From Halopenitus malekzadehii (lineage in GTDB: Archaea; Halobacteriota; Halobacteria; Halobacteriales; Haloferacaceae): 64,000 nucleotides of DNA. Positions 26,414 through 43,825 of the stretch are shown here, piece by piece (the first letter of the stretch is position 1; every line of letters begins with the position of its first letter). Where the stretch lies: positions 248,001-312,000 of the forward strand of contig NZ_FNWU01000002.1 of assembly GCF_900108505.1 (NCBI RefSeq), in the 5' to 3' direction. Below the pieces are notes generated by a model. That model worked only from the letters and a program-made list of their open reading frames with translations. It did no database searches and had not been told where the DNA came from. The position numbers were made by a program, and so were the translations under genes.

Positions 26414-27568
26414 CTATCGGGCGACCTCCGCGCCGCCGATCGACTCGACGTCCTCGTCGATCACGTCGTCGACGTCGGTCGGGTCAAGGGGGTCGGCCTC
26501 GCGGACCGCGGGGATTATCTCCTCGCCGAACTGCTCGAGTTCGGTGTCGTAGTGGAGGAAGCCGGCGAGGACGATGTCGATCCCGATCGCGTCCAGCTTC
26601 CGGATGCGCTCGACGATCTGTTCGTCCGTGCCGATGAGTCCGGTCTTGAAGCCGTCGTTGTACTGGACCAGGTCCTCGAAGTCGGAGTCGTCCCACATCC
26701 CTTCGCCCTCGGCGGAGGACTGGCCAGCCTGCTTGACCTGCTCGCGGAAGGCCTCGACGGCCTCGTCGGTCGCGTTCTCGATGATCCCCTCGAGCGTCTC
26801 CTTGGCTTCCGCCTCGGTGTCGCGCTGGATGACGAAGCCGTTGGCGGCGAACCGCGGCGGCTCCGTGCCGAACTCCTCGGCGTAGGACTCGACATCCTCG
26901 ATGATCCCGCGGATCTTCTCGAGGCTGCCGCCGTTGATGAACAGCACGTCGGCCTGCCGGGCCGCCATCTTCCGCGCGGCCTTCGAGTTCCCGCCCTGGA
27001 AGACCTGCGGGTACGGATCCTGGACCGGCTTCGGCTGCATCGGGGCGCCGTCGAAGCCGTCGATGTCCCTCCCGATCGTGTAGAATCGGCCGTCGTAGGT
27101 GGCGTACTCCTCGGTCCACAGCGCCTTCAGGACCTCGATGAACTCCTCCGAGCGCGCGTACCGTTCGTCGTGAGCAAGCCACGGCTGTCCGAACCCGGTG
27201 AACTCGCCTTTGAACCAGCCGCTGACGACGTTGATGGAGAACCGGCCGTTGCTGATCCGGTCCGCCGTCGCGATGAAGTTCGCGAGCGGGCCGGGTTCCC
27301 AGAGGCCGGGGTGGACGGCGCCGATGACGTGGAGGTCCTCGGTCTGTGCGGCCAAGGCGTTGGCAACCGATAGTGCCTCGAGCTGTCTGTCCGCGCCGTA
27401 GCTTCCGAAGAACCGTGCCTGCGCGAGCGCGTACTCGAACCCGACGTCCTCGGCCGTCCGCGCGAGGTCCAGGTTGTACTCGTAGGTCCAATCCGTATCC
27501 ATCTCCCAGTCGGAGACGACGAGGCCCCCGCTGACGTTCGGCACCCAGTAGGCGAACTCCGTGTCCAT
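26414..27568 (-). CDS. sfnG: SfnG-like FMNH2-dependent dimethylsulfone monooxygenase (LLM class)
   Basis: A 384-residue luciferase-like monooxygenase. Several blocks match SfnG rather than SsuD: FAYWVPNVSGGLVVSDWE at the N-terminus, RFSINVVSGWFKGEFTGFGQ, WLAHDERYARSEEFIEVLKA, FQGGNSKAARKMAARQADV and DLVQYNDGFKTGLIGT. SfnG oxidises dimethylsulfone to methanesulfinate, feeding sulfur assimilation. The downstream FMN reductase completes the system. A run of TTAATATATATG lies 9 bases upstream, closer than a normal TATA box. A related sulfone or sulfonate substrate is possible. Confidence 0.85.
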   Translation of the reverse strand: MDTEFAYWVPNVSGGLVVSDWEMDTDWTYEYNLDLARTAEDVGFEYALAQARFFGSYGADRQLEALSVANALAAQTEDLHVIGAVHPGLWEPGPLANFIATADRISNGRFSINVVSGWFKGEFTGFGQPWLAHDERYARSEEFIEVLKALWTEEYATYDGRFYTIGRDIDGFDGAPMQPKPVQDPYPQVFQGGNSKAARKMAARQADVLFINGGSLEKIRGIIEDVESYAEEFGTEPPRFAANGFVIQRDTEAEAKETLEGIIENATDEAVEAFREQVKQAGQSSAEGEGMWDDSDFEDLVQYNDGFKTGLIGTDEQIVERIRKLDAIGIDIVLAGFLHYDTELEQFGEEIIPAVREADPLDPTDVDDVIDEDVESIGGAEVAR

Positions 27569-27724: not shown

Positions 27725-28063
27725 GTGCAGGTCGAATGTCGATTCTTCGGACCGTTCCGGGAGGAGGTCGGCGAGCGGTCGGTCGAGATCACGACCGACG
27801 CGGAGACGTACGGCGACCTCCTTGCGGAGCTGGAGGACCGGTATCCCGGACTGTCCGGACGGCTGATCGCCGACGGATCGTTGGTCGGCGAGATCGCGGT
27901 CACCCGTAACCGGAAGAACATCCGGCACCTCGAGGGACCCGACACGCGGCTGACCGACGGTGACGTGGTCCGACTTACGCCGTCGGTCTACGGCGGGTGT
28001 GTGAACGCCGATCCGGATCGGCAATTCCTTCCGGTATCGGGTGCTCGCCGCGACATCGTGTGA
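27725..28063 (+). CDS. MoaD/ThiS-like ubiquitin-fold protein (SAMP-type) with a tail after GG
   Basis: A 112-residue beta-grasp protein. Residues 1-92 follow the SAMP/MoaD pattern: VECRFFGPFREEVGERSVEI, LLAELEDRYPGLSGRLI, NRKNIRHLEGPDTRLTDGD and VYGG. Such proteins carry sulfur for molybdopterin or tRNA thiolation, or are attached to lysines, and need a free C-terminal GG. Here GG is followed by 22 more residues (CVNADPDR through ARRDIV). Either a protease trims it or a frameshift removed the original stop: after GGCGGG comes TGTGTGA, and removing TGTG would restore GG-stop. Starts with GTG. Confidence 0.78.
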   Translation: MQVECRFFGPFREEVGERSVEITTDAETYGDLLAELEDRYPGLSGRLIADGSLVGEIAVTRNRKNIRHLEGPDTRLTDGDVVRLTPSVYGGCVNADPDRQFLPVSGARRDIV

Positions 28064-28075
28064 CTCCCGTCGGTC

Positions 28076-28127
28076 GGATCCAACGATCGGATCCAACGAT
28101 CGGGTCCATCGATCGGACTCATCGGGC
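28076..28127. repeat. 13-bp tandem repeat, four copies
   Basis: GGATCCAACGATC occurs twice exactly and twice with changes, starting 13 bases after the MoaD-like stop codon. Confidence 0.8.
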
Positions 28128-42060: not shown

Positions 42061-43764
42061 TCAGTCGTCGGCCGGCGAGGCGGCGGCGCCGTCGCCGGCT
42101 CCGAGGTCGGTCGCGACCGGTTCGATCCGGTCATCGGGAAGGGTGCCGTCCTCGCGGAGTCCGCGCGCCTCGTAGTACTCCTGAATGGCTGCCTCCAGGT
42201 CCGGAATCTCGTAGGGGAGGGCGTCGGCGTCGGCGTCGATCCCGCGCCGGTTGTTGAAGTGACGTTCGCGCTCGATCGTCCGCGCGCCGACCGCGAGCAG
42301 CTCCTCGTAGTCGGTCTCCAACAGCGCGGCGAGGCGCTCGTCGGTGATGTGACCGCTCGCGAAGGCGCAAACGACCGCGGAGTCCCGGATCGCGTTGCGG
42401 TTCTCGTGTTCGACGAGGAGGTCGGCCTTGCCGAGCGTCCCTTCGGGGTCGATCTCGCCGGCGTACTCGGGCGAGAGCAGCCCGCCGTACATGTGGTCGG
42501 CCCCGCGGTTCGCGACCGCATACGAGAGGCCCTGTCCGTGCAGCACGCGACCGTCGTGGGCAGCGAACTCCATCCCCTTGACGGTGTAGTCGTCGACGCC
42601 GAGCTGGTCGTGCACACGGTGCACACCCTCGGCAAGGTCGTCGCCGATCCCCTCGCGGTGGGCGATCTTCTCGACCGTTTCGCGGGCCAGCTCGGCGTTT
42701 CCGAACTCGTCCTCGCTCGCGAGATAGGCCGCGACGGTGACCCCCGCGGAAATGGTGTCAAGTCCGAACCGGTCACACAGTTCGTTCGCCTTCATCACGT
42801 CGACGATGTCGCCGACGCCCTGGTTCGACCCGAACGCGTAGACCGTCTCGAACTCCGGTCCCTCCGTCTCGAAGCCGGTCTCCTCGTCGCGGGTCGGCAG
42901 CTTGCAGGCGTAGGCACACCGCGAGCACGCGCCCTTCTTGTACTTCTTCTCCTCGACGGCGTTTCCGCCGATGTCGGCGGCCGACTCGAACTCGTACTCG
43001 GAGAAATAGCGCGTGGGCAACGAGAAGTTCTCGTTGATGAACTCCGTGTTGCCGGTGGTCCCCTGCCGGCGCATCAGGTCGTCGGAGGTGGCCGCCTCCC
43101 GGTGGATCTCCATCTCCGGCGGGTCGGGGATCTCGATCTCGGGGGCCGAATCACCCTCGAAGGTGACCGCCTTGAGGTTTTTCGACCCCAGCACCGCGCC
43201 CAGTCCGCCGCGCCCGAACGCCCGGGAGTCGAAGGTCATCACCGACGCGAACCGGACCCGGTTCTCGCCGGCGGGGCCGATCGCGATGCAGTTCTCCGGA
43301 CCGAGATCCCGCGTTTCGGCGACGTGATCGGAGACCTCGGGTACCGTGGCGCCGGCGAGTTCGGGAACCGGCTCGAACTCGACCCCCTCGTCGGTGACGT
43401 GGGCGATCAGGAGCTCGTCGCTCGCCCCCGTCACCTCGAGCGTCGAGATGCCCGTCGCGGCGAACTCCCGGGAGAGGAAGCCGCCGGCGTTCGTCGAGAC
43501 CAGCCCGTCGGTCAACGGCGAGAGGCCGGTCATCGAGAGCCGCCCGGTGAAGGACGTGCTCGACAGCTGCAGCGGGCCGGTCGCGAGGTACGCGCGGTTC
43601 TCCGGCCCGAACGGGTCGGCGTCGAACGGGATGCGGTCGTGGGCGAGCGCGGTCGCGACGCCGCGGCCGCCGATGAACGACTCGAGGACGTCGTCGATCG
43701 GCGTTCTGGTTGCCGAACGCTCGGTCAGGTCGATGGTGAGCAGTGGGCCCTCCGCGTGAAGCAT
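42061..43764 (-). CDS. aor: Aldehyde:ferredoxin oxidoreductase (tungsten-pterin type)
   Basis: A 567-residue enzyme oxidising aldehydes to acids with ferredoxin. The [4Fe-4S] cysteines are C280, C283 and C287 (CSRCAYAC), with C466 (AVVCAF) as the likely fourth. The pterin-binding GRGGLGAVLGSKNLKAV is at 185-201, and the N-terminal LTIDLTERSATRTP and FIGGRGVATALA are typical. It would need a tungsten or molybdenum bis-pterin cofactor. The C-terminal tail is acidic. Physiological substrate unknown; it stands alone between a methyltransferase and cbiA. Confidence 0.92.
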   Translation of the reverse strand: MLHAEGPLLTIDLTERSATRTPIDDVLESFIGGRGVATALAHDRIPFDADPFGPENRAYLATGPLQLSSTSFTGRLSMTGLSPLTDGLVSTNAGGFLSREFAATGISTLEVTGASDELLIAHVTDEGVEFEPVPELAGATVPEVSDHVAETRDLGPENCIAIGPAGENRVRFASVMTFDSRAFGRGGLGAVLGSKNLKAVTFEGDSAPEIEIPDPPEMEIHREAATSDDLMRRQGTTGNTEFINENFSLPTRYFSEYEFESAADIGGNAVEEKKYKKGACSRCAYACKLPTRDEETGFETEGPEFETVYAFGSNQGVGDIVDVMKANELCDRFGLDTISAGVTVAAYLASEDEFGNAELARETVEKIAHREGIGDDLAEGVHRVHDQLGVDDYTVKGMEFAAHDGRVLHGQGLSYAVANRGADHMYGGLLSPEYAGEIDPEGTLGKADLLVEHENRNAIRDSAVVCAFASGHITDERLAALLETDYEELLAVGARTIERERHFNNRRGIDADADALPYEIPDLEAAIQEYYEARGLREDGTLPDDRIEPVATDLGAGDGAAASPADD

Positions 43765-43825
43765 ACGTGTAGCCTCGCGGTAGATCCCCAAATAGCCTTG
43801 CCTCGCGGGACGAACGTCGGCCTCG

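What the first reader, a model, noticed from the sequence alone, without database searches (positions are those of the whole stretch)
27725..28063. MoaD/SAMP-like protein with 22 residues after the GG, and a TG-repeat at the lost stop
SAMP and MoaD proteins act through a free C-terminal GG. Here the frame reads on past YGG to a 22-residue tail. The DNA after GGC GGG is TGTGTGA: removing two TG units would give GGG TGA and end the protein at GG. Either the protein is a precursor cleaved by a JAMM-type protease, or slippage in the TG tract switched it off or made it slippage-controlled.
Basis: partly seen in the sequence, partly recalled or inferred. Interest (0 to 1): 0.55.

Follow-up and report, generated by a model that had tools for sequence, protein, structure and literature searches.

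The report
Tail-blocked sulfur carrier linked to AOR
A small ubiquitin-like sulfur-carrier protein of a salt-loving archaeon has lost the stop signal after its working end, so it is probably made as a blocked precursor that a protease must trim, as several of its sister proteins in the same cell also seem to be.

Summary
The ORF is real: a 112-residue ThiS/MoaD protein (GTG start at 27725) with Gly-Gly at residues 90-91 and 21 (not 22) residues after it. Two sister species (genus Halopenitus) keep the same frame past GG with an 8-residue tail; the window species then lost that second stop (TGA to CAA, 28022-28024). The TG tract is at chance frequency and does not vary in length, so slippage is rejected. 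The core is under purifying selection. In other haloarchaea the orthologue lies near an aldehyde ferredoxin oxidoreductase (AOR) gene in 32 of 40 evaluable loci; the window's own AOR orthologue is 14 kb away. Of 41 orthologues, 33 end exactly at GG and 8 have varied tails. In this genome the SAMP1-like protein ends GG-Ser, SAMP2 is fused in frame to a peroxiredoxin, the SAMP3-like protein has a second domain after GG, and two JAMM metalloproteases carry their catalytic motif. Best reading: an AOR-type MoaD whose stop was lost and whose tail is removed by JAMM; the trimming is inferred, not shown. A new variant of a known kind (capped sulfur carriers, MoaD-MoaE fusions).

The parts
27725..27997 (+). 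beta-grasp core of the MoaD-like protein, residues 1-91, ending Gly-Gly
   Evidence: PF02597, NCBIfam SAMP1 and moaD_arch; dN/dS below 0.3 in three species pairs
27998..28060 (+). 21-residue tail after Gly-Gly; first 8 codons in register with the tails of G001 and G002
   Evidence: pLDDT under 50 for residues 90-111
27998..28004 (+).
28022..28024 (+). CAA where both sister species have TGA: second stop loss
28061..28063 (+). present stop codon TGA
42061..43791 (-). aldehyde ferredoxin oxidoreductase, orthologue of the AORs that flank this MoaD in other haloarchaea
   Evidence: PF01314 and PF02730; identities
26414..27568 (-). luciferase-like monooxygenase upstream (context only)
   Evidence: PF00296
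25799..26413 (-). NADPH-dependent FMN reductase (context only)
   Evidence: PF03358

Best explanation
This is the AOR-associated MoaD paralogue of haloarchaea: a beta-grasp sulfur carrier expected to be adenylated and thiocarboxylated at Gly-Gly by the cell's single ThiF/UbaA-like E1 and to serve the pterin (tungsten) cofactor of AOR. In the ancestor of Halopenitus the stop directly after GG was lost (most simply TGA to TGY, which gives the Cys after GG), adding 8 residues; in the window species the next stop was lost too, making 21. The protein is thus made as a blocked precursor, and most likely a JAMM/MPN+ metalloprotease of the HvJAMM1 type cuts after GG. Shown: family, frame shared by three species, purifying selection on the core, orthology of and linkage with AOR, E1, MoaE and two JAMM genes in the genome, low-confidence (probably disordered) tail in the model. 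Inferred: the cofactor role and the cleavage.
For: Same frame with tail in three species; dN/dS 0.22-0.27 (NG86) and 0.10-0.13 (YN00); AOR within the fetched flank in 32 of 40 evaluable loci and AOR orthologue in 9 of 9 genomes where it was not seen next to MoaD; E1, MoaE, JAMM genes; SAMP1-like ends VSGG-S in G000, VSGG-SRIADR in G001, VSGG in G002; SAMP2 fused to a peroxiredoxin. Precedents read as passages: HvJAMM1 cuts a linear SAMP1-MoaE fusion after the last Gly in vitro and in vivo (PMC4443979); DRJAMM and the natural MoaD-MoaE fusion of Deinococcus (PMC8832034); GG-MV and GG-C carriers PtmS2 and PtmS3 (PMC6006322).
Against: No cleavage data. The JAMM genes are on other contigs than this gene (C24 and C27 against C26). 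C-terminal change is not rare in this window: 2 of 15 other genes compared with H. persicus differ by 9 or more residues. A redundant carrier could gain a tail without being trimmed. 33 of 41 orthologues keep the exact GG end, so the bare end is usually favoured.
Confidence: 0.6

Rival explanations
1. Relaxed redundancy: the tail blocks thiocarboxylation, the protein no longer works as a sulfur carrier, and other MoaD/SAMP proteins supply AOR.
For: Carriers are partly redundant for the tungsten cofactor in Thermococcus kodakarensis (PMC11323500, passages); tails are more frequent where AOR is not adjacent (5 of 8 against 3 of 32, Fisher p 0.0038).
Against: Purifying selection on the core and intact GG in all three species; the association does not survive the tree; other carriers of the genome are also blocked.
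Confidence: 0.22
2. The tail is removed by another peptidase (carboxypeptidase or general protease), not by JAMM.
Against: Known cases read here use JAMM, and JAMM genes are present.
Confidence: 0.1
3. TG-tract slippage switches the gene on and off.
For: Taking out two TG units would restore GGG TGA; a four-base insertion cannot be told from a substitution as the original event.
Against: Three units only, chance frequency, interrupted in G001, same length and frame in three genomes.
Confidence: 0.03
4. The tail has gained a function of its own (for example the Cys after GG, or a binding segment).
For: CV and a later Arg or Lys are shared by the three species in the first 8 residues.
Against: Outside Halopenitus the tails share no motif; TGA to TGY gives Cys without selection; 8 codons are too few for a test of selection.
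Confidence: 0.05

Closest known systems
AOR-linked MoaD genes (Iyer et al. 2006, PMC1779556; Makarova and Koonin 2010, PMC2948915; passages read)
   Same: MoaD-type beta-grasp protein whose orthologues sit next to AOR
   Different: GG is internal, and in Halopenitus AOR is 14 kb or more away
Capped sulfur carriers QbsE, PtmS2 and PtmS3 (PMC6006322, passages; the GGCF end of QbsE is recalled)
   Same: residues after GG must be removed to activate the carrier; Cys directly after GG also in PtmS3
   Different: longer tail, no JAMM gene beside it, carrier expected to serve a cofactor and not a natural product
SAMP1-MoaE linear fusion cut by HvJAMM1 (PMC4443979, passages) and the MoaD-MoaE fusion of Deinococcus (PMC8832034, passages)
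   Same: peptide bond after the last Gly of a MoaD domain, opened by JAMM
   Different: a short disordered tail in place of MoaE; the Haloferax fusion was engineered
HVO_2177 of Haloferax volcanii, PDB 2m19
   Same: closest solved structure by sequence and by fold
   Different: the deposited chain ends at VAGG; here SVYGG plus tail

Membership tests
ThiS/MoaD beta-grasp family | sequence profile and fold | tested here: met
   PF02597 50.6 bits over cut-off 22.5; Foldseek best hits HVO_2177 and SAMP1
SAMP (protein modifier) | C-terminal Gly-Gly | tested here: not met
   GG at 90-91 is followed by 21 residues in the encoded protein; a mature form could still meet it
SAMP (protein modifier) | UbaA-dependent conjugation to lysines | not testable with these tools
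   an E1-like gene is present, nothing more
AOR-linked MoaD | gene adjacent to AOR | tested here: inconclusive
   true for orthologues (32 of 40 evaluable loci within the fetched flank); in the window 14 kb apart, same convergent orientation
AOR-linked MoaD | serves the tungsten cofactor of AOR | not testable with these tools
   proposed in print
Capped sulfur carriers matured by JAMM (QbsE/PtmS type) | residues after GG | tested here: met
Capped sulfur carriers matured by JAMM (QbsE/PtmS type) | JAMM gene next to the carrier gene | tested here: not met
   JAMM genes are on contigs C24 and C27, the carrier on C26
Capped sulfur carriers matured by JAMM (QbsE/PtmS type) | cleavage after GG | not testable with these tools
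   needs protein and protease

The most novel reading that the evidence does not exclude
Halopenitus makes nearly all its beta-grasp ubiquitin-like proteins as C-terminally blocked precursors (AOR-type MoaD with 8 or 21 extra residues, SAMP1-like with 0, 1 or 6, SAMP2 fused to a peroxiredoxin, SAMP3-like followed by a second domain), as eukaryotes do with ubiquitin. JAMM trimming has become the obligatory first step of both cofactor sulfur transfer and protein tagging, and stop codons after GG drift freely because the protease restores the end.
Probability: 0.35. Interest if true: 0.62.

Novelty: new variant of a known kind. Interest (0 to 1): 0.4.

Why it matters
If JAMM trimming is general in these cells, it explains how a C-terminus thought essential can repeatedly lose its stop codon (at least 6 changes of tail state on the tree of 43 orthologues), and gives a natural test of whether archaeal JAMM proteases mature ubiquitin-like precursors and do not only remove them from targets. 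It also warns annotators that a GG away from the end does not rule out a carrier.

Tried and rejected
TG-tract slippage and sequencing error: rejected on three genomes. A first DNA alignment and a first translation treated minus-strand loci as forward; both were discarded and redone. A scan for TTYGGNCCNTTYMG over 170 genomes was not specific and was not used. The association of tails with AOR separation (Fisher p 0.0038; counts entered by hand, later matching; L049 and L079 left out because their contigs or matches end too early) was not upheld with the tree. Adjacency depends on the flank held: L068 has about 3 kb and L047 about 6 kb downstream. The upstream monooxygenase and FMN reductase were considered as a sulfur-assimilation context; of the nearby upstream genes only CinA recurred in 4 of 42 compared loci, so this was dropped. 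Whether the first event was TGA to TGY or a four-base insertion was not decided, because I found no outgroup 3' region that lines up.

Full report
What is there. The window is G000:C26:248001-312000, a haloarchaeal genome of 41 contigs. The ORF 27725-28063 (+) gives 112 residues. It matches ThiS PF02597 and the NCBIfam models SAMP1 and archaeal MoaD above their cut-offs. The closest solved protein is 2m19, HVO_2177 of Haloferax volcanii, by sequence (E 2e-18) and by fold. Gly-Gly is at residues 90-91 and 21 residues follow. The AlphaFold2 model from 43 sequences has mean pLDDT 76.4, with residues 90-111 under 50: a folded core and a probably disordered tail.

The tail is not a strain accident. 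Two genomes of the same genus hold orthologues (84% and 81%). In both, the frame runs past GG in the same register as in the window: GG-CVTTDPRR and GG-CVTTGSKR. The window reads GG-CVNADPDR and then CAA where the others have TGA. So there were two steps: a stop lost directly after GG in the genus ancestor, and a second stop lost in the window species. Codons 2-91 are under purifying selection in all three pairs (NG86 ratio 0.22-0.27, YN00 0.10-0.13, ratios taken from the values). TGTGTGA is at chance level and does not vary in length.

What it is. A scan of named genomes with an alignment of nine orthologues gave 42 loci. Of 41 with a readable end, 33 stop exactly at GG and 8 have tails of 1, 2, 2, 8, 8, 10, 12 and 26 residues without a common motif (one of the 8 is H. 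persicus). AOR lies within the fetched flank in 32 of 40 evaluable loci, 31 of them convergent, 21 of the 31 with 55 bp or less between the two genes. The window's own AOR (42061-43791, minus; PF01314 and PF02730) is about 70-79% identical to those AORs, about 94% to the other Halopenitus copies and 85% to the Haloparvum copy; the next paralogues are at about 59-63%. In all 9 of 9 genomes where AOR was not seen next to MoaD (L049, whose contig ends early, included), the orthologue is elsewhere at 75-94%. In Halopenitus the two genes are still convergent on one contig, 14 kb apart here and about 17-19 kb in G001 and G002. AOR-linked MoaD genes were described by Iyer et al. 2006 and Makarova and Koonin 2010 and proposed to serve the tungsten cofactor (passages); that role is carried over here by orthology and context and is not tested. 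In Aromatoleum the MoaD-like genes aorD and aorE lie in the AOR operon (passages).

How it can work. The genome has one ThiF/UbaA-like E1, one MoaE and two JAMM-family proteins, both with an HSHP...S..D motif (that this is the catalytic motif is recalled). G001 and G002 have JAMM genes too. Other carriers of the same genome are also blocked after GG. The SAMP1-like protein ends VSGG-S in G000, VSGG-SRIADR in G001 and VSGG in G002. SAMP2 (PF21965) continues in frame into an AhpC/TSA peroxiredoxin in G000, and likewise in G001 and G002, G015 and G021, while in G022, G039 and G031 a stop follows GG. The SAMP3-like protein has GG after its beta-grasp domain and then a second domain ending RAGG in all three; that this second domain is the TBP-like GG family is my inference. 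A fifth protein ends FCC, a kind already noted (arCOG00539, passages). So in G000 and G001 none of the four GG-type proteins ends at its beta-grasp GG; in G002 one does. HvJAMM1 cuts a linear SAMP1-MoaE fusion after the last Gly in vivo and in vitro (passages), so the simplest account is that JAMM trims these ends and tails are therefore tolerated. In the mixed set of 30 loci, which includes paralogues, 17 of 30 have residues after GG by my reading of that output (4 of them two-domain proteins; the three Halopenitus proteins are among the 17).

What speaks against. Nothing here shows cleavage. A relaxed, redundant carrier would also gather tails, and carriers are partly redundant in Thermococcus (passages). 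C-terminal change is not rare: 2 of 15 other window genes differ by 9 or more residues from H. persicus. Tail presence goes with AOR separation in a plain count, but the tree (14 of 40 inner branches starred) leaves too few independent pairs.

Novelty. Searches of the open-access library for SAMP/JAMM/C-terminal extension/diglycine, QbsE/HcyS/JAMM, SAMP2/peroxiredoxin/fusion, SAMP processing/HvJAMM1, Halopenitus with ubiquitin-like/SAMP/MoaD and haloarchaea/sulfur carrier/JAMM/C-terminal tail listed no paper, judged by title and start of abstract, on tailed AOR-type MoaD or on a SAMP2-peroxiredoxin fusion. Most subscription papers are not held, so this is no proof of absence. Makarova and Koonin report peroxiredoxin genes as neighbours of ubiquitin-like genes in Thermococcales (passages). 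The kind (blocked carriers that need JAMM) is known; recurrent stop loss across the ubiquitin-like set of one archaeal genus is a new variant.

Noticed in passing
L092:1501-2187 (G000:C27:323447-324133); also L125, L126, L127, L128: SAMP2 is fused in frame to an AhpC/TSA peroxiredoxin in three Halopenitus genomes, Haloparvum (G015) and G021; in other haloarchaea the two are often neighbouring genes with a stop after KGG.
   Followed up: partly
L034, L097, L098: The SAMP1-like protein of Halopenitus has 1, 6 and 0 residues after VSGG in three species.
   Followed up: partly
L009, L015, L016, L021, L026, L029, just after the matched gene: In several SAMP3-like genes the short cap after GG ends in a stop that overlaps an ATG (ATGA or TGATG), which may be the start of the next gene, so translational coupling may explain such caps (DNA).
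   Followed up: no
window 28022-28040 and the same place in L002 and L003: A stretch like ATTCCTTCCGGTATC just after the ancestral stop is nearly unchanged in three species, while the following bases differ.
   Followed up: no
window 28070-28120 and the same intergenic stretch in L002 and L003: Short tandem repeats of different units follow the gene in each of the three species (sequence).
   Followed up: no
L037 (G000:C12:28982-29260): A ThiS-like protein ending FCC, the double-cysteine kind already noted in Halobacteria.
   Followed up: no
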